Assembly: GCA_950022495.1 (NCBI GenBank)
Contig: CATLLJ010000001.1
Coordinates: forward strand, 1-64,000
Reading direction: 5' to 3'
Source of the DNA: an uncultured bacterium
Lineage (GTDB): Bacteria > Cyanobacteriota > Vampirovibrionia > Gastranaerophilales > Gastranaerophilaceae
DNA length: 64,000 nucleotides
Part shown: one piece after another, positions 27,364 through 64,000 of the stretch
How positions within the stretch are numbered: the stretch's first letter is position 1
Layout: every line of letters starts with the position of its first letter
Position numbers and translations under genes: made by a program
Notes under the pieces: generated by a model
What the model saw: the letters and a program-made list of their open reading frames with translations, nothing else
The model's database searches: none
Told to the model about the DNA's origin: nothing

Positions 27364-28116
27364 CTACTCTAAATCTGAATTAAAGTAGCCGGCAATATAT
27401 TTAAAAGTTTTTAGTGCAGTATCTATATCCATTGTTTGAGGTTGATTTTTACGTTTTTCTTTAATCGTTATTGTATTATTTTTCAAATCCACATTTTGTA
27501 TAATATAAACATGCCATCTTCTACCGTCAAACTTTTTCTGACCGCTTCCGATAATAAAACTGTAATCTTTCTCGGCTTCCATTTGTTTAAAAAGTTTCAT
27601 AACTTCATCTTTATAACCCTTTAAATTCCAATTAAAATCTTGTTCGGCGATTACTCGAGGTTTCACTCCGGTTAAAGTCTCCATAAAATGAGATGTTAAA
27701 TTATTCTCAAATTTATATTTTTTAAATATTTCACTAATTCTACATATCCACGGTTTTGATTTATGTTTCTGCTCATATTGAGCGACAGAAATATCTAAAC
27801 TTCTAATTATATCATTATTCTGCATCGAATAAAGTTCCTCGTACTGAGCAATAGCTTTATCCGCAGGCACTGAATACTTTTCTCGATCTCCCGTTGGTGA
27901 ATAAAAATAACAGTTTATCTGATTAGGATTATTATCATCCCGTTCAATCTGATTTTTTAAAATCTTTCGTCCATTTTGAGTCTGTGCTAGAGTTTCAATA
28001 GTAGACATCAGATAACAATCACTTAGATGTTGCGTTGCAGTTTTAAATGATTCAATATCGTTATCCGTTATTGAACCTTTAAACATTATATTAAAATTAG
28101 CAAAACCTACCTTCAC
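27364..28116 (-). CDS. Divergent calpain-like cysteine protease candidate
   Basis: 250 aa; HLSDCYLMSTIETLA (calpain-like GDCxLL), RRWHVYIIQNVDLKNNTITIKEKRKN (His/Asn region), DIDTALKTFKYIAGYF. Confidence 0.55.
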   Translation of the reverse strand: MKVGFANFNIMFKGSITDNDIESFKTATQHLSDCYLMSTIETLAQTQNGRKILKNQIERDDNNPNQINCYFYSPTGDREKYSVPADKAIAQYEELYSMQNNDIIRSLDISVAQYEQKHKSKPWICRISEIFKKYKFENNLTSHFMETLTGVKPRVIAEQDFNWNLKGYKDEVMKLFKQMEAEKDYSFIIGSGQKKFDGRRWHVYIIQNVDLKNNTITIKEKRKNQPQTMDIDTALKTFKYIAGYFNSDLE

Positions 28117-29313: not shown

Positions 29314-29721
29314 TTATTTATTTAAAAGTTTTTCACTCATTTGAGTAAGATCATCCATAATTTGTTTAAGGGAATTATTATCCTTTAAAAATTTGAGGAT
29401 GTCATCCTTTGAACCATATATTATCGGACGTTTCACTTCTATTTGCATTGTTGGATGAAGCATTAATATTTCAAATGTATGTTTTGCTTTATTTTCTGCG
29501 TCTTTTGAAATATTAAAAGCAATAGCTCTACAATACAACTGTTTATCTTTATTTACTAAATGTTCATTAATTGGACGATAATATGTAGAGTCCTTAACCT
29601 CACATTCTGCACGATTGTAGATTTCCTTTAGAATTTGAGCAAGTTTTTTTTCTGTTGTCATAGACAAATCTTTTCCCTTGACTTTAGCTGACTTGAAATT
29701 TAGATTGTTTAATTTTATCAT
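29314..29721 (-). CDS. hypothetical protein, putative partner of upstream RelA/SpoT-like gene
   Basis: 135 aa, 16 nt downstream of 29738-31186 on same strand. Confidence 0.7.
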   Translation of the reverse strand: MIKLNNLNFKSAKVKGKDLSMTTEKKLAQILKEIYNRAECEVKDSTYYRPINEHLVNKDKQLYCRAIAFNISKDAENKAKHTFEILMLHPTMQIEVKRPIIYGSKDDILKFLKDNNSLKQIMDDLTQMSEKLLNK

Positions 29722-29737
29722 ATTTACCTCTATTAAT

Positions 29738-31186
29738 CTATATTATAAATGATCTTTGTGCATCTTGTTCAATATGAGGAACAAATGTTTGCATTTTTCT
29801 TGCCTGATCAACTTCGTTGAGATGATGCAGCCGCTTCATTGATTCTTCTGAAAGTATCGGGTCAAAACCTGCAGGAAGCTGTGGTTTTGGAACTTGTATA
29901 CCTAATTCTTTCATTCGATAGTAATCATAAGTTCTGCTTATATAACTATCATACACAGGCATCTGAGTTTTTGAAAGACTCTGGACTGCTTTTTTATAAG
30001 GTTGGAAAATTTCACCAAGAGTATTTTTGTCTAATACTGAATCATATTTGAGGTGTTCATACTCTCCAAAAGGACCGGAACCTCGAATTTGGATTTCGGC
30101 AAAGCTACCGTCTTTCAACGTAACATTTACTTGAGCCGTTGTGTAACCACTCGGTTTTATCGCATCCTGTGCATTTTTAGAAAGACCTTCAAGACCATAT
30201 TTTGCTAAATCAATATTTTCAGAACAGGTAATTATATCAAATCTTTCACCTGTTGCCATCTGTAATCTTTCAAACTGTCTTATTTGCCTGTCTGAAAAAT
30301 AAGATACTCCGTCGATACCCTTATAGTTATTGATTTCAGTCATTCTAACAGGTTTAATTTTTGGATTTGTCTGCAATTCCTTAATTAAATCTTTACTAAT
30401 ACCTGCTTGTTCCAGCTTTTCAATAGTAGTAACATTTCTATCCAGAGCATCACGCAAGCCGCCAAGAATAAATCTGCGGAACACAGGTTCGGATTGTTTT
30501 TCGGCAAGTGCAATTTTTATAGGTTTTGCTAAACGGTTTGCAATGGCCAATTCTTTTTTTGACAATTGTCTGCCGCTGAATAAACTCATCACAAGATGTT
30601 TTTCCCGATTAGACAATCCATTACCGTCTATCTTAATTGTATTTAATGTATCAATAATATCTTTTCTTGTAATATCTTGAAGCTGAATTCTGCCCCCAAT
30701 AGCATCTTGAATAATCTGGCGTGCTTCTTCATCTGTTTTTATTGATTTTTTCTTTTTAATCAATACTCTTTCAAGCTTTGAAAATACTGAATTAGCACCT
30801 TTTGCTCTTACGGAAACATTAAAACCATCAAAGACTTCTTTAATTTCTCTTTCGGCTGAAGGTAAAGCTTTTTCATAACTTTCTGCAAGTCTCAATGCAG
30901 TATTTCCTAATTCTGCCTGTTGAAATGAGTTTTTAACCTTTAATAAATCAGGTTTAATTTCAAATGCAGGATTATTGTAATGTCTTGTGTGAATATTCAT
31001 TGGCATTGTAATATCAGGTTTCACACGGTATTGTGCGACACCGGGTTTTTCGTAACTGCCTATGGCTGTTTCAATACCTCTATATCTTAATGAATTTTCT
31101 GCAACAGGATTTGTTACTGTCTTAGCAACAGTTTTACCACGTAAAAATGTTCTTGTTCCACTAATTATTTTAGTGATTAATGACAT
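29738..31186 (-). CDS. Divergent RelA/SpoT-fold nucleotidyltransferase-like protein
   Basis: VRAKGANSVFSKLERV (RxKxxxSxxxK), IQDAIGGRIQL, KPSGYTTAQVNVTLKDGSFAEIQIRG...EYEHLKYD. Confidence 0.6.
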   Translation of the reverse strand: MSLITKIISGTRTFLRGKTVAKTVTNPVAENSLRYRGIETAIGSYEKPGVAQYRVKPDITMPMNIHTRHYNNPAFEIKPDLLKVKNSFQQAELGNTALRLAESYEKALPSAEREIKEVFDGFNVSVRAKGANSVFSKLERVLIKKKKSIKTDEEARQIIQDAIGGRIQLQDITRKDIIDTLNTIKIDGNGLSNREKHLVMSLFSGRQLSKKELAIANRLAKPIKIALAEKQSEPVFRRFILGGLRDALDRNVTTIEKLEQAGISKDLIKELQTNPKIKPVRMTEINNYKGIDGVSYFSDRQIRQFERLQMATGERFDIITCSENIDLAKYGLEGLSKNAQDAIKPSGYTTAQVNVTLKDGSFAEIQIRGSGPFGEYEHLKYDSVLDKNTLGEIFQPYKKAVQSLSKTQMPVYDSYISRTYDYYRMKELGIQVPKPQLPAGFDPILSEESMKRLHHLNEVDQARKMQTFVPHIEQDAQRSFII

Positions 31187-31255: not shown

Positions 31256-31291
31256 AAAAAGAGATATTACGTAATTGTAATATCTCTTTTT
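31256..31291. terminator. Intrinsic terminator
   Basis: AAAAAGAGATATTACGTAATTGTAATATCTCTTTTT. Confidence 0.85.
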
Positions 31292-31319: not shown

Positions 31320-31544
31320 CTATCTTAGGCTAACTTTTACAGCAGGTCCTTTTTGAGAAATTTCAACTTTGTTTTCTCTTGCTAACCAGCCTAAACCTAA
31401 ATCTGCAAAGTTACCTTTTAGGTCTAATTCTTTTTTCATTTTTGCAAAAGAAGTTGTTCCGTTTTCATTTAAGTAGTTGTAGATTTCTCCTGCTGCAAAT
31501 CCAATTCTTTCTTCTTGTGATAAAGTTACTTTTTTAACTGCCAT
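31320..31544 (-). CDS. winged helix-turn-helix protein (DUF2582-like)
   Basis: 74 aa: SQEERIGFAAGEIYNYLNENGTTSFAKMKKELDLKGNFADLGLGWLARENKVEI. Confidence 0.85.
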   Translation of the reverse strand: MAVKKVTLSQEERIGFAAGEIYNYLNENGTTSFAKMKKELDLKGNFADLGLGWLARENKVEISQKGPAVKVSLR

Positions 31545-58832: not shown

Positions 58833-61800
58833 ATGGCTTTAAATGTAGATAAATTAAAACAAACCAATACAGTATCAACCCCGGTATCAACATCTACCGA
58901 TACTTCTACACGTACAAATAAAAAGCCTATCGATTTTAATTATAAAAATGGTGAGAATACTGAGACTGATAATGATATTTTAGCTTCAATCAACTCAAAA
59001 GAATGTAAAGGTTTGAAGGATGAAGCTGAAAAAATAGAATGGTTGAGACAAAACAATCCTTCTTTAAAAGGAGCCAGTGATAAAGATATAAAAAATTATA
59101 TTACACTCGCTCAACAAATAGAAGAAGAAAATAAAAGTAAAGACACTAGTGTAACTACTTCATCATCGCCAACTGTAGAAAACAAAGACGAAACATTAAC
59201 AACTGAAGAAACAAATAGTGTTGCAGTTGAATTTAATGAACAAGAAACACCTGCAATGCGTCAATTTAATAAAAAAACTACAGAATACCTTAAATCAATT
59301 AATTATAATGGTAGTATCGAGAATTATATTCAAGAAGTTTCAACTAAAGAAATTTCAGAATTAACAAATGTAGAAAAAGGTATATTACAAGAATTTAAAG
59401 CTGCAAATTTGCCTCCAGCTAAGAATTCTGCTAAAAATAATGAACTTTTTAATGTACATCAATTACTATCGCCTCAATTTACAAAATTAAACAACGAACA
59501 AAAATTAAAAGAGCTATCTAAAATATTTTTAAGTGCCAACGATTCTAAATATACAGAATTATCACCAAAAGAAAAGGCAAAATATGAAAAAGATACGGTT
59601 GAAATTCTAAAAAAATTAATAAATTATAATGAAAAAAATAAATTAAATAATTTAACTAGTTCATTAAATGCTGTAGCACTATTGCAATATGCACATACTA
59701 CAGGCAAAACTATTGATGATTTATCAAAACTAAAAAAAGAAAATATTAATGAAATTATAAATAATTCTGTTGAAAACATTATAAATGTGACCCTAAAAGA
59801 AATTAAAAATATTCCAGGGGAAAGCAATGTTGAAAAGGTAAATAAATTTGCTGATGCAATACTTATGGCAACTGACAAAGAATATGAAAAACTTAAACCT
59901 GGTAAAGAGAAAGATGCCTATAGAAATGCTAAAATAAAAGAATTTTTTAATGACATAGGGATACCTGTAGATTCTATTTCAAACGCAACACACATGCATG
60001 AAGAGGAATTATTTAAAAATTTAATAGAAATAGTTTCAAAATTATCAAAAAATGGCGACTTATTACCGGTATTAAAGGCGTTTCAATCTGATGATCCAAA
60101 ATTAAAAACTCAAGCGTTTAATAAAGTAATAACTAGTCTGCCAGATGACTTGAAGCAGAAATATAAAACTTCAATTGAAATAATGAAGGTAACCAATGAT
60201 GTTAGAATAACCATTGGTAAAAAAGATCTAACCGGTGCTGATATATATAAGTATTTAAAAAACAAACCGAATCTTTCCGAAGTGGAAAAAAATCTGCTTG
60301 AAATGTATTCTCGTTTAGACAAAATAATAGACTTAAAAGAAGATAATATTGATTTAAAACTTATTAATGAAGTTGCAGCTGAAATGTCTGGAATGGGCAT
60401 TGATGAATACATTACAACTACAATCAACAATGCAAACTTTAATCGTGGCGAAGGTGGACTAAAGCAAATTAAACAATTGATTGCTTCAGCACATGCCTCT
60501 GGTAATGCAGATCAATTAAAACTTATTGAAAATTTATTAAATAATAGAAAAGATATAAACCCCATATTACGAAAAAAATTCAATGCCCTTCTAAGTGCGG
60601 AAACATTTGCAAAGACTGGAGTCTCAGCAATGATTGTACATAATAACGGAACAGAAGCCGCAAAAGCAACTTGCATGCTAGAAAAGAAAAATCCGGAAAT
60701 GGCAATCAAAGTGACTAGAATGATGCCTGCTTGTGCTAAAGATGAAACAGCTTGGAGTAAGTTTGCTGAAGGAACATTCCATTCTAAAAATTTAAGAACA
60801 GCTGCAGCCCAGGGATTAAATGATTTGCCGGATAGAGTAAAAGCTAATAGGTATGCTTTAGCGGCAGCTAACAACTCCAACATTGCAGATAGTTACAAAT
60901 CTCAATTTACTAAAGAATTAATTGTTGATGCAAAAAGACTTGGAACAGAAGAACAATTAAGATATGCTAAAACTTTATCTCAGGTAAACAATCCTGCCGT
61001 TACTGAAGGTTTAGCAGCAGCATCAAAATCTGTTGATTCAAGTGCTAGACAGCAATATGACTCTTATGTTGACAATGCAATGAAGAATTACACTCCGGAA
61101 CAGCAGGCTGCCATCAGGCAAGCTCGTGAAACCGGCGAAATTTCATCTTCAACATTAGCTCAAACTAATACTTCTAACGGCAAACCTATTGAAAATTCAG
61201 GTTCAAGTACATCCGGCAGTACAAATTCTGTAGGTCATGGCACCGGTTCAGCTTCTGCACCGGCATCTGCAAATAATGCCGCAGGCAGTAATACAGCTCA
61301 AGCCTCCGGCGGTAGTGCTAATGCACCAGCTTCTTCATCAGCTAATCAATCCGGAATAAGCACTGCAAATCAAACTTCAAGAAGTGCATCAGCAAATAAA
61401 ACTGTTTCATCTTCAAACAACAAAAGTTCCGTTGCAGCTTCAGTAAGCAGTTCTTCAGCTTCTCCAATATCTTCAAGCAAGACTCAAACTTCTAATAGCC
61501 CTTCTGCAGTTGATGCAAATGATTCAGAAGTTTCAACCGAATCAAAAACAACAACGCTTCCAACTATTTCTCCTGAGGAAACTCAAAAATTAAAAGAAGA
61601 AGCTCAAGTTTTGATGGACAGAATTGAAGAATTCATGGAAACTCAAGCTGAAAGCATTCAAGCTTACGAAGAAGAACAGTCTAAAAAACTCGAATCAAGA
61701 TTTGAAGATATTGTTGCAGAATTAACAGGTGAAACTGAAGTATATTCAGACCTTAATATAAGCAAATATGAAAATCTTCCTCAAGAATTAAAAAATGATA

Positions 61801-62468
61801 TTAAAGAATACTTCCAGGATTTATACGAAAAGAATGGTATCAATGCAATCTATAATGCACTAGATGGCAACAAAAAAGATTCATTCGTTGAAAGACTTGC
61901 CAGTACAAAATCACATGAAGCGATTATGGCTTTTGCCAACGAACATAGAAGTGACAGAGGCATCATAAAAACATTATTCAAATATAGTCAAAATAGTGAA
62001 TTAATTAGATTTATGGATTCAGCTGATATTATTGATTTGTATATGAAAGGTCAAATTCAAGATATCAACTTAATCAAAAATAATTCAGAAGCATTAGCCA
62101 AAATTATTGAATTACAATTAAAAGGCGGAGAAGAACCTAGAAATCTAAAAGGACTCTATGCATTATTAACAGCAGAATTTCAAAGCGATATTTTAGCAAA
62201 TTATCCTGCTTTAGCTGAAGAAATTCCGGGAACAGATGCCCACTATGCTAAACATATCCAAAGTATGAAAACTGCACCATCTACAAACCCTAATCCTGCC
62301 ATAGCTGCAACAAATTCTGATAGTGGTATGATTACACTTGAAAATGAAATACCTGCAGAACACGAAAATCCATACATTTATGACAAAGGCGATGGACATA
62401 GTGTAACATTACCTTTTGGCAGAGATTATGACAGACAAAAGAAAAAAGGTCACATATATTTCGCATAA
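58833..62468 (+). CDS. Large helical hypothetical protein with Ser/Ala/Thr/Asn-rich linker
   Basis: 1211 aa single ORF; low-complexity GSSTSGSTNSVGHGTGSASAPASANNAAGS... between helical regions. Confidence 0.8.
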   Translation: MALNVDKLKQTNTVSTPVSTSTDTSTRTNKKPIDFNYKNGENTETDNDILASINSKECKGLKDEAEKIEWLRQNNPSLKGASDKDIKNYITLAQQIEEENKSKDTSVTTSSSPTVENKDETLTTEETNSVAVEFNEQETPAMRQFNKKTTEYLKSINYNGSIENYIQEVSTKEISELTNVEKGILQEFKAANLPPAKNSAKNNELFNVHQLLSPQFTKLNNEQKLKELSKIFLSANDSKYTELSPKEKAKYEKDTVEILKKLINYNEKNKLNNLTSSLNAVALLQYAHTTGKTIDDLSKLKKENINEIINNSVENIINVTLKEIKNIPGESNVEKVNKFADAILMATDKEYEKLKPGKEKDAYRNAKIKEFFNDIGIPVDSISNATHMHEEELFKNLIEIVSKLSKNGDLLPVLKAFQSDDPKLKTQAFNKVITSLPDDLKQKYKTSIEIMKVTNDVRITIGKKDLTGADIYKYLKNKPNLSEVEKNLLEMYSRLDKIIDLKEDNIDLKLINEVAAEMSGMGIDEYITTTINNANFNRGEGGLKQIKQLIASAHASGNADQLKLIENLLNNRKDINPILRKKFNALLSAETFAKTGVSAMIVHNNGTEAAKATCMLEKKNPEMAIKVTRMMPACAKDETAWSKFAEGTFHSKNLRTAAAQGLNDLPDRVKANRYALAAANNSNIADSYKSQFTKELIVDAKRLGTEEQLRYAKTLSQVNNPAVTEGLAAASKSVDSSARQQYDSYVDNAMKNYTPEQQAAIRQARETGEISSSTLAQTNTSNGKPIENSGSSTSGSTNSVGHGTGSASAPASANNAAGSNTAQASGGSANAPASSSANQSGISTANQTSRSASANKTVSSSNNKSSVAASVSSSSASPISSSKTQTSNSPSAVDANDSEVSTESKTTTLPTISPEETQKLKEEAQVLMDRIEEFMETQAESIQAYEEEQSKKLESRFEDIVAELTGETEVYSDLNISKYENLPQELKNDIKEYFQDLYEKNGINAIYNALDGNKKDSFVERLASTKSHEAIMAFANEHRSDRGIIKTLFKYSQNSELIRFMDSADIIDLYMKGQIQDINLIKNNSEALAKIIELQLKGGEEPRNLKGLYALLTAEFQSDILANYPALAEEIPGTDAHYAKHIQSMKTAPSTNPNPAIAATNSDSGMITLENEIPAEHENPYIYDKGDGHSVTLPFGRDYDRQKKKGHIYFA

Positions 62469-62735: not shown

Positions 62736-64000
62736 TTATAAAACAATCGGCCAATAAAAATCTACAAGATATGATGCAGCATCAAAAGGATGTGATAAAA
62801 ACTTCAACTCTTTTGACTGTTTTATCTGAGTATATGTAGGCACATCAATTTTTGAAGAACCTTCAATATAGCGTAAATTATACATATTATAGAGAAGCTT
62901 TTCGCATTTTGGAGAAATAAATAAGCAGATTTCTCCCTTTGCATTTTTAACTTTAGCATTAAAAGCGGCTATCCTGTTTTTTATTGGAGGATTAAATGCC
63001 TTGATTCTAATTTCGACATTATAACCGAAAGATTCAAGCTTTTTCTTGATAATTACATAGTTTGTATATTCGCTCATACAACTTCTGTTATCACCGGAAG
63101 CATCACCGTTAATAATAATTTTACCCTTATGATTTGGATATCTGTTATAGAATTCATCACAAGTTTTAGAGGTTGTTGTATTTTCAATAACAAGTTCATC
63201 AAAATAAAAAACCTTGTTTTCAGTTTTATGAGCCAGAACCCAGGCCATAGGGTCAACGTTAAAATCACAGCTTATGTGAACATCCAAATCAGGTTGATAC
63301 TTGATATCTCTAACATTTTCATTAGTAAAATCTTTGACAACAAGATTTTCATTATAATTTCCGGTCTTACCAAGAACAAATGTTTCATAATAACTTTTGT
63401 CATACAACTTTTTAAGTTCTTCACAAAAACCCTCCGGCAAATAGATATTTTGAGTTGTTGGTGCACAAATCAAACGATAATTTGGCGGCGGATTGATAAA
63501 AAAAGTTTTATAAATCCACCCTTGCTGAATTTCGGGATTAGTGTGCCCGAAAATTCTATAGGTAAAATTTTTCCATTCTGGAAGAATTTTCTGCCTCATT
63601 CTTGCAAGAAGCATCTTGAAAGTATCGTAAGGGATATCCGACATTTCTTCAATTTCAACAAATCCCAGATTTAATGACTTTAACTTGTTAGGTTCATCAA
63701 AATGCCTGAAAAGGATTTCTGAATTGTTGCGAAAAATAAGCTTCTGTTCAGAACTCATCCATTTGTAATCTACACCATCAACCAGCTTCATACTATCAAG
63801 ATGTTCAAAATAACTCTGAAGTGTGGTATCCCTGACAAGAGTATAAGTTTGAGCACCCACAAGCCCTCTGATACCATTAAACTTTAAAGCAAGAAGTATC
63901 CCGAGTAAAGATCCGGCAAAAGTTTTACCGGACCCATACCCGCCCTGATAGACAGCCACATCAAGGGAATAATTATGAGGGATTTCCAGAAATTCACGCT
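62736..64000 (-). CDS. Phage terminase large subunit (TerL), truncated by window edge
   Basis: REFLEIPHNYSLDVAVYQGGYGSGKTFAGSLLG (reading frame continues to window end), FVEIEEMSDIPYDTFKMLLARMRQ, HISCDFNVDPMAWVLAH nuclease-domain Asp, INGDASGDNRS. Confidence 0.92.
   Translation of the reverse strand, partial: REFLEIPHNYSLDVAVYQGGYGSGKTFAGSLLGILLALKFNGIRGLVGAQTYTLVRDTTLQSYFEHLDSMKLVDGVDYKWMSSEQKLIFRNNSEILFRHFDEPNKLKSLNLGFVEIEEMSDIPYDTFKMLLARMRQKILPEWKNFTYRIFGHTNPEIQQGWIYKTFFINPPPNYRLICAPTTQNIYLPEGFCEELKKLYDKSYYETFVLGKTGNYNENLVVKDFTNENVRDIKYQPDLDVHISCDFNVDPMAWVLAHKTENKVFYFDELVIENTTTSKTCDEFYNRYPNHKGKIIINGDASGDNRSCMSEYTNYVIIKKKLESFGYNVEIRIKAFNPPIKNRIAAFNAKVKNAKGEICLFISPKCEKLLYNMYNLRYIEGSSKIDVPTYTQIKQSKELKFLSHPFDAASYLVDFYWPIVL

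What the first reader, a model, noticed from the sequence alone, without database searches (positions are those of the whole stretch)
29314..31186. Divergent RelA/SpoT-fold protein with an adjacent small partner gene
The 482-aa protein carries the RxKxxxSxxxK segment (VRAKGANSVFSKLERV), a D-x-x-G-x-R-I strand (QDAIGGRI) and the later GYxxxQxxV...(F)AEIQIRG...EYEHLKYD block expected of RelA/SpoT synthetase folds. A large insertion lies between these blocks and ~120 residues precede them; no HD hydrolase or ACT/TGS domains are apparent. A 135-aa gene follows after 16 nt on the same strand. This fits a toxSAS-like toxin-antitoxin/immunity pair, an alarmone regulator, or an exported nucleotidyl/pyrophosphotransferase effector.
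Basis: inference. Interest (0 to 1): 0.68.

Follow-up and report, generated by a model that had tools for sequence, protein, structure and literature searches.

The report
RelA-fold toxin with immunity partner
This gut cyanobacterium carries a probable nucleotide-modifying toxin related to the bacterial stress enzyme RelA, paired with a small gene that probably protects the producer; relatives build the same enzyme into giant multi-part toxins, in a lineage where such weapons were thought rare.

Summary
Window 29738-31186 (-) encodes 482 aa; a 135-aa gene follows after 16 nt. The AlphaFold model (pLDDT 85, pTM 0.80) matches small alarmone synthetases in the PDB (prob 0.99) and the catalytic residues are conserved. 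The organism is a Gastranaerophilales (non-photosynthetic gut cyanobacterium) with a separate canonical RelA/SpoT.

The domain occurs in 273 of 383 genomes of the order, in ORFs of about 440 to over 6000 aa. A homologous partner gene nearly always follows: 210 of 213 partner-bearing genomes also have the domain. Two giants, 77% identical over their first 1110 residues, differ afterwards; only the one with the RelA/SpoT domain has the partner. Genomes lacking the pair have the flanking genes directly adjacent. Toxin and partner diverge together.

Best reading: a RelA/SpoT-family pyrophosphotransferase toxin with a cognate immunity protein; the window holds the compact version of a polymorphic-toxin cassette. 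Gln replaces the guanosine-contacting His in all 70 readable partner-bearing sequences, so ATP/ADP or tRNA is a likelier acceptor than GTP. Toxicity, substrate, neutralisation and export are inferred, not shown. New variant of a known kind; no library searched describes the partner family.

The parts
29738..31186 (-). 482-aa RelA/SpoT-fold enzyme (probable toxin), P0001
   Evidence: ORF with RBS-like AAAGGAAAA before the ATG; AF2 model and Foldseek to SAS2/RelP prob 0.99; dN/dS about 0.1
31043..31186 (-). N-terminal 48 residues, predicted disordered (pLDDT below 50) and variable; possible export or sorting segment (inference)
30776..30808 (-). R127-x-K129...S133...K137: donor-ATP motif of RelA/SpoT synthetases
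   Evidence: R 71/73, K 72/73, S 65/73, K 71/73 in partner-bearing homologues
30689..30706 (-). D161-x-x-G-x-R166: strand with catalytic Asp
   Evidence: invariant in A1 and A3; D 63/73 in the automatic alignment
30131..30157 (-). K344-P-S-G347-Y348-T-T-A-Q352: acceptor loop (syn3); Gln where (p)ppGpp synthetases have His
   Evidence: Q in 70 of 70 readable partner-bearing sequences; H or N in 11 of 13 readable sequences without a recognised partner
30053..30097 (-). E364-x-Q366-x-R-G ... E377-Y-E-H region: catalytic Glu strand and following helix
   Evidence: E364 70/73, Q366 71/73, E377 and H378 71/73
29314..29721 (-). 135-aa partner, probable immunity protein, P0002; alpha + four strands + two helices, conserved G-[SNT]-[KR]-x-[ED]-I-[LIV] near the C-terminus
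   Evidence: AF2 pLDDT 86, pTM 0.75; homologues follow the RelA/SpoT domain across the order
31320..31544 (-). upstream flank: 74-aa conserved winged-helix-like gene; directly adjacent to dnaJ in genomes lacking the pair (insertion-site marker, not part of the system)
   Evidence: L228, L229, L230, L232-L236
28179..29237 (-). downstream flank: dnaJ-type gene (insertion-site marker)
31256..31291 (.). 16-bp perfect palindrome plus T/A run, terminator-like, separating the upstream gene from the pair

Best explanation
The pair is a toxin-immunity module. The 482-aa protein is a RelA/SpoT-fold pyrophosphotransferase (shown: fold and catalytic residues) that probably moves the pyrophosphate of ATP to a 3'-OH of an acceptor other than GTP, most likely ATP/ADP giving (p)ppApp, or a tRNA CCA end (inferred from Gln at the guanosine-contacting His position), stopping growth of the cell it acts in (inferred). 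The 135-aa protein made from the next gene probably binds the catalytic domain and blocks it in the producing cell (inferred from its tie to this domain). In relatives the same domain is one warhead inside giant modular proteins with interchangeable payloads, each payload with its own small gene, i.e. a polymorphic toxin system; the window carries the compact, stand-alone cassette. The export route is unknown.
For: Fold: AF2 plus PDB and viral Foldseek hits to SAS2/RelP, RelQ, SaEAS and phage RelA/SpoT. Catalytic residues conserved, purifying selection. Partner follows the domain in 25 of 25 readable loci of other genera, 3-265 nt downstream or slightly overlapping; 210 of 213 partner-bearing genomes have the domain; 12 of 15 apparently unpaired partners turned out to be paired on inspection. 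Partner follows the domain and not the carrier: L108 and L224 share 1110 aa at 77% identity, and only L108 has the RelA/SpoT domain and the partner; G066 holds two giants with related N-termini, and the genome's only partner follows the RelA/SpoT one. A second payload, calpain-like, is shared by L031 and L227, which also share a different 98/114-aa neighbour gene (45% identity, 4e-19). Distances of toxin and partner correlate (rho 0.53; within-genus shuffles at most 0.41, 0 of 1000 reach it). Empty sites. Intact partner next to an interrupted toxin frame in G011.
Against: No toxicity, binding or enzyme data. The partner fold matches no known RelA-type antitoxin in sequence or structure searches. 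No recognised trafficking domain on P0001; no T6SS sheath or VirB4 gene in 36 relatives. In G342 and G268 the partner lies away from the RelA/SpoT giant, unusual for an immunity gene. Statistics are not corrected for phylogeny.
Confidence: 0.72

Rival explanations
1. Type II toxin-antitoxin or phage-defence (toxSAS/CapRel-like) module acting inside its own cell: the same enzyme and neutraliser, released from inhibition by phage infection or stress, never exported.
For: Stand-alone two-gene cassette gained and lost as a unit at one chromosomal site; toxSAS TA modules use the same fold and bicistronic layout (PMC11782079).
Against: The same domain and partner family sit in giants with exchangeable N-termini and other toxin-like payloads. 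The partner has no DNA-binding domain in the model. No PADLOC hit. Toxin gene comes first. No defence genes noticed around it.
Confidence: 0.18
2. Partner is a dedicated secretion chaperone or adaptor of the effector rather than an immunity protein.
For: Small protein with a disordered N-terminus, encoded just downstream; some partners carry a short F-x-G motif near the N-terminus.
Against: Carriers with a nearly identical 1110-aa N-terminus but no RelA/SpoT domain lack it. The domain lies mid-protein in many giants, an odd place for a substrate signal. Two intact partners stand apart from any RelA/SpoT gene. The F-x-G motif is not enriched genome-wide.
Confidence: 0.14
3. Alarmone regulator: a (p)ppGpp synthetase with a small regulatory subunit serving the cell's own stress response.
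For: RelA/SpoT synthetase fold with conserved catalytic residues.
Against: Separate canonical 746-aa RelA/SpoT in the genome; patchy presence within the genus; His to Gln at the guanosine contact; existence of giant forms.
Confidence: 0.05
4. Inactive relic or structural RelA-like fold without enzymatic function.
For: Below the Pfam cut-off; very divergent.
Against: Catalytic residues retained in nearly all homologues; low dN/dS.
Confidence: 0.03

Closest known systems
Tas1/Apk1 (T6SS) and Apk2 (MuF prophage) adenosine 3'-pyrophosphokinase toxins with Tis1/IapK immunity
   Same: RelA/SpoT synthetase fold as a toxin domain, small immunity gene downstream, modular N-terminus in polymorphic toxins; guanosine-contacting SxH altered (GxN in Apk2, PMC12226406).
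   Different: No detectable sequence similarity to PDB chains; partner unlike Tis1 among the listed structure hits; Gln at the His position; no PAAR, Rhs or MuF carrier seen; long insertion between the catalytic blocks.
toxSAS toxin-antitoxin modules (FaRel2/ATfaRel2, PhRel2, CapRel)
   Same: Fold and two-gene layout; neutraliser encoded next to a toxic small alarmone synthetase (PMC11782079).
   Different: No conserved YXXY motif in the partner alignment; no such antitoxin fold among listed hits; domain also present in giants with exchangeable payloads.
Exported alarmone synthetases (SaEAS, VpEAS, AaEAS; PMC12691689)
   Same: RelA/SpoT synthetase domains linked to export; PDB 8vx3 (SaEAS) is among the structural hits.
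   Different: That survey (1,369 Apk1-like sequences) does not mention Cyanobacteria (0 occurrences); Sec-type EAS lack immunity genes, whereas ours have a partner.
RelA/SpoT toxin domain of polymorphic toxins and XopAD-type T3SS effectors (Zhang et al. 2012, PMC3482391)
   Same: RelA/SpoT-like nucleotidyltransferase as an interchangeable payload.
   Different: Known carriers are T7SS, MuF and T3SS; here new N-terminal carrier types in Gastranaerophilales. That survey calls such systems relatively rare in cyanobacteria.
Canonical long RSH RelA/SpoT
   Same: Synthetase core motifs.
   Different: No HD, TGS or ACT domain; His to Gln; patchy; a true RSH is encoded separately.

Membership tests
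RelA/SpoT synthetase (SYNTH) superfamily | SYNTH/nucleotidyltransferase fold | tested here: met
   AF2 pTM 0.80; Foldseek PDB 6fgj prob 0.99, 5dec 0.90, 8vx3 0.85; viral RelA/SpoT E 1.4e-4 prob 1.00. Individual PDB E-values are modest (0.015) but nearly all top hits are this fold.
RelA/SpoT synthetase (SYNTH) superfamily | Catalytic residues: R-x-K...S...K, D-x-x-G-x-R, G-Y, E-x-Q | tested here: met
RelA/SpoT synthetase (SYNTH) superfamily | Pfam PF04607 curated cut-off | tested here: not met
   No hit for P0001; 9 of 15 homologues and two giants hit below the cut-off. A sensitivity limit rather than a biological criterion.
(p)ppGpp synthetase (RSH/SAS) | Guanosine-recognition motif SxH in syn3 | tested here: not met
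   TxQ in P0001; Gln in 70 of 70 readable partner-bearing sequences
(p)ppGpp synthetase (RSH/SAS) | Makes (p)ppGpp | not testable with these tools
   needs biochemistry
toxSAS toxin-antitoxin | Neutralising gene in the same operon | tested here: inconclusive
   Adjacent conserved gene is present; neutralisation not tested
toxSAS toxin-antitoxin | Antitoxin of a known type (Tis1-like, pZFD with YXXY, SAH hydrolase, Panacea) | tested here: not met
   No Pfam/NCBIfam/PADLOC family for P0002; no clear PDB fold match; no conserved YXXY. Not filed under a known toxSAS subfamily.
toxSAS toxin-antitoxin | Toxic to the producing cell without the antitoxin | not testable with these tools
   needs expression assays
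Polymorphic toxin system | Shared N-terminus with interchangeable C-terminal payloads | tested here: met
   For giant relatives: L108 vs L224, 77% identity over 1-1110 then no similarity; L098 vs L223 likewise at 42% over about 1020 aa. Not shown for the compact P0001 itself.
Polymorphic toxin system | Payload-specific immunity gene downstream | tested here: met
   Presence and payload specificity of the gene met; immunity function not tested
Polymorphic toxin system | Recognised trafficking domain or secretion system | tested here: inconclusive
   None recognised by Pfam; VirB4 and T6SS sheath absent in 36 relatives; other routes untested

The most novel reading that the evidence does not exclude
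Non-photosynthetic gut cyanobacteria (Gastranaerophilales) hold a previously undescribed, order-wide polymorphic-toxin system: carriers up to more than 6000 aa with several enzymatic warheads, exported by an unknown route, whose commonest warhead examined here is a RelA/SpoT-fold enzyme with a Gln-marked, non-guanosine acceptor specificity, neutralised by a new immunity-protein family.
Probability: 0.35. Interest if true: 0.78.

Novelty: new variant of a known kind. Interest (0 to 1): 0.62.

Why it matters
RelA/SpoT-type toxins are known from T6SS, T7SS, MuF phages and TA modules, but polymorphic toxins were reported as relatively rare in cyanobacteria (PMC3482391). Here one RelA/SpoT toxin domain and one dedicated partner family extend over most of an order of gut and environmental Cyanobacteria that is mostly uncultured. 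It supplies about 200 natural toxin-partner pairs, in stand-alone and giant formats, for asking what sets acceptor choice in RelA-type enzymes (His versus Gln versus Asn in the same bacteria) and how an immunity protein keeps up with its toxin. It also points to an unknown export route, since T4SS and T6SS markers are absent.

Tried and rejected
(1) Pfam, NCBIfam, PADLOC and PDB sequence searches of P0001 and P0002: nothing above cut-off. (2) A secretion-signal idea from the recurrent N-terminal F-x-G in partners and neighbours: no enrichment over internal background in 431 crude gene calls (1.4% vs 1.0%); dropped. (3) Partner as general chaperone of the giants: rejected as the main reading because RelA/SpoT-less giants with the same N-terminus lack it. 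(4) Partner-like hit inside the 1211-aa window ORF (59982-60320, E 0.006): not recovered with the broader profile A4; chance. (5) Phage origin: no P0001 relatives in 50,697 phage records or in viral contigs by the sensitive-to-close-relatives scan. (6) Partner fold search: only weak Whirly/Pur-alpha-like hits (TM about 0.4); not interpreted. (7) A first regex count of the syn3 residue was wrong because it caught earlier NY motifs; replaced by aligned columns. (8) search for related loci with the diverse alignment failed for lack of conserved stretches; the single-protein scan returned 5 relatives, two of them labelled Candidatus Gastranaerophilales.

Full report
What is there. The window belongs to a 1.93-Mb genome (G000). 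A scan of named genomes finds the closest relatives of the protein in uncultured bacteria, two of the five labelled Candidatus Gastranaerophilales; with the neighbouring gene content this makes the host a non-photosynthetic gut cyanobacterium. Two genes lie head to tail on the minus strand, 482 aa (29738-31186) and 135 aa (29314-29721), 16 nt apart, each with a ribosome-binding-like sequence. They lie between a 74-aa winged-helix-like gene and a dnaJ gene. A terminator-like palindrome (31256-31291) separates them from the upstream gene.

The fold. Sequence libraries do not name either protein. Nine of 15 close homologues reach PF04607 RelA_SpoT below its cut-off (best E 5.9e-4), as do two giant relatives (1.4e-4 and 0.0035). 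An AlphaFold model from 15 homologues has pLDDT 85.3 and pTM 0.80; residues 1-48 are disordered. Against the PDB the best hits are S. aureus SAS2/RelP (prob 0.99), B. subtilis SAS1 (0.90) and the exported synthetase SaEAS (0.85); Tas1 also appears. Against viral models the top hit is a phage RelA/SpoT protein (E 1.4e-4, prob 1.00). The PDB E-values are modest (0.015 at best) because of the long insertion, but nearly all top hits agree on one fold. I regard the RelA/SpoT fold as established by prediction.

Active or not. R127, K129, S133, S136, K137, D161, R166, K344, G347, Y348, Q352, E364, Q366, E377 and H378 are invariant in the close set, and most are conserved in 73 partner-bearing homologues across the order. 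dN/dS is about 0.06-0.11 for the enzyme and 0.10-0.24 for the partner (dS is saturated in some pairs). So an enzyme is being maintained. One difference from (p)ppGpp synthetases stands out: the His of the syn3 SxH motif, described as guanosine-recognising (PMC12226406), is Gln in all 70 partner-bearing sequences that could be read. Among 13 readable sequences without a recognised partner it is His in 7, Asn in 4 and Gln in 2. The Asn group has its own small downstream genes (119-138 aa) too divergent for the profile or barely reaching it. The His group are solo proteins of about 350-400 aa. These are clades rather than independent events, so the association is suggestive only.

The partner. 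It is not a local accident. A profile of 23 partners found 26 strong hits in 59 relatives; all those examined lie beside a RelA/SpoT-type ORF. In 25 of 25 readable loci from other genera a homologous 134-165-aa ORF follows within 265 nt or slightly overlaps (L090 is cut). In 383 genomes of the order, 273 have the domain (E<=1e-6), 213 have the partner (E<=1e-4), and 210 have both (Fisher p about 2e-45, not corrected for phylogeny). Of 150 listed partner genes, 131 have a listed domain upstream on the same strand. I fetched 15 of the other 19: 12 are paired, one reaches a contig end, and two (L151, L153) stand apart from the RelA/SpoT giant that the same genome encodes elsewhere. In a phylum-wide sample, every listed partner match is inside the order.

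What the partner tracks. Domain-bearing ORFs range from about 440 aa to 4366 aa in the listed set (46 below 600 aa, 23 at 2000 aa or more) and 6282 aa in G342. Giants carry other toxin-like domains: an ADP-ribosyltransferase in L032 (2.5e-9) and a calpain-like protease in L031 (8.6e-6). Using the N-terminal part of L031 as query I found giants without the RelA/SpoT domain. None of the five examined has the partner. The cleanest case is L108 against L224: 77% identical over residues 1-1110, unrelated afterwards; L108 has the RelA/SpoT domain (2157-2484) and the partner, L224 has neither. G066 has both kinds of giant and a single partner gene, next to the RelA/SpoT one. A second payload behaves the same way: L031 and L227 share a calpain-like region and also share a different 98/114-aa neighbour gene. 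So small genes go with payloads, not with carriers. That is the pattern of polymorphic toxins and their immunity genes, and it argues against a general chaperone.

Evolution. In genus members without the pair the winged-helix-like gene and dnaJ are neighbours with a short gap (L228-L230, L232-L236), so the pair behaves as a unit that is gained and lost. In G022 this site is empty and the module sits in a giant elsewhere. Distances of toxin domain and partner correlate (Spearman 0.527 over 59 loci); shuffling partners within genera never reaches that (maximum 0.412 in 1000). For example the 4003-aa protein of L152 (genus g30) has its nearest domain and its nearest partner in L035 (genus g1). 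In G011 the toxin frame is interrupted by stops while the partner is intact, as expected if immunity outlives a toxin, though an assembly error is possible.

How it most likely works. Shown: fold, catalytic residues, two-gene unit, domain-specific partner. Inferred: the enzyme transfers pyrophosphate from ATP; the acceptor is ATP/ADP or a tRNA CCA end rather than GTP; the product or ATP drain stops growth; the partner binds and blocks the enzyme in the producer; giants, and perhaps the compact form, are delivered to other cells. Not known: export. No VirB4 and no T6SS sheath gene was found in 36 relatives. The compact form could also act inside its own cell as a toxin-antitoxin or phage-defence module (0.18).

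What is known. RelA/SpoT domains as polymorphic-toxin payloads were predicted in 2012 for T7SS, MuF and T3SS carriers (PMC3482391) and shown biochemically for Tas1/Apk1, Apk2 and exported synthetases (PMC12226406, PMC12691689). toxSAS antitoxins fall into Tis1-like, YXXY/pZFD and other types (PMC11782079). The present partner shows none of these features in the searches done. The 2012 survey called polymorphic toxins relatively rare in cyanobacteria, and I found no paper on such systems in Gastranaerophilales in the open library. I therefore call it a new variant of a known kind, not a new category.

Noticed in passing
window 27364-28116 (-); L031:3044-3811 (-): 250-aa calpain-like cysteine protease candidate (Pfam C2 E 0.009, below cut-off) just past dnaJ; a close relative sits directly after the partner gene of the giant in G022, so the two may travel together.
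   Followed up: partly
L168, L169, L173-L177: Solo RelA/SpoT-like proteins of 350-400 aa in the same order, most with an N-terminal 'PLxxDTVSF' segment and the canonical His in syn3, without a recognised partner gene.
   Followed up: partly
L166, L171, L172, L179: Third clade (about 330 aa, Asn in syn3) followed at 30-81 nt by a 119-138-aa gene that the partner profile barely or not detects; probably a divergent partner.
   Followed up: partly
L031:4325-4621 (-), L227:11677-12021 (+): 98/114-aa gene family (45% identity) after two giants that share a calpain-like region: candidate immunity gene for that payload.
   Followed up: partly
L032 residues 786-922 of the 2959-aa ORF: ADP-ribosyltransferase exoenzyme domain (PF03496, 2.5e-9) upstream of the RelA/SpoT domain in the same giant protein.
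   Followed up: no
L202:18147-19127 (-), own genome: 326-aa protein with the same N-terminal 'KDTVSFG' segment as the solo RelA/SpoT proteins, followed by a kinase-like start; the segment may be a lineage-specific sorting signal.
   Followed up: no
window 62736-63959 (-): Phage terminase large subunit-like ORF at the window end, suggesting a prophage border.
   Followed up: no
window 58833-62468 (+): 1211-aa helical, Ser/Thr-rich lineage protein of unknown role, after a 242-aa ORF with N-terminal 'NFGRR'.
   Followed up: no
L151:11788-12231 (+), L153:4741-5187 (+): Partner genes standing apart from the RelA/SpoT giant encoded elsewhere in the same genome (G342, G268).
   Followed up: yes
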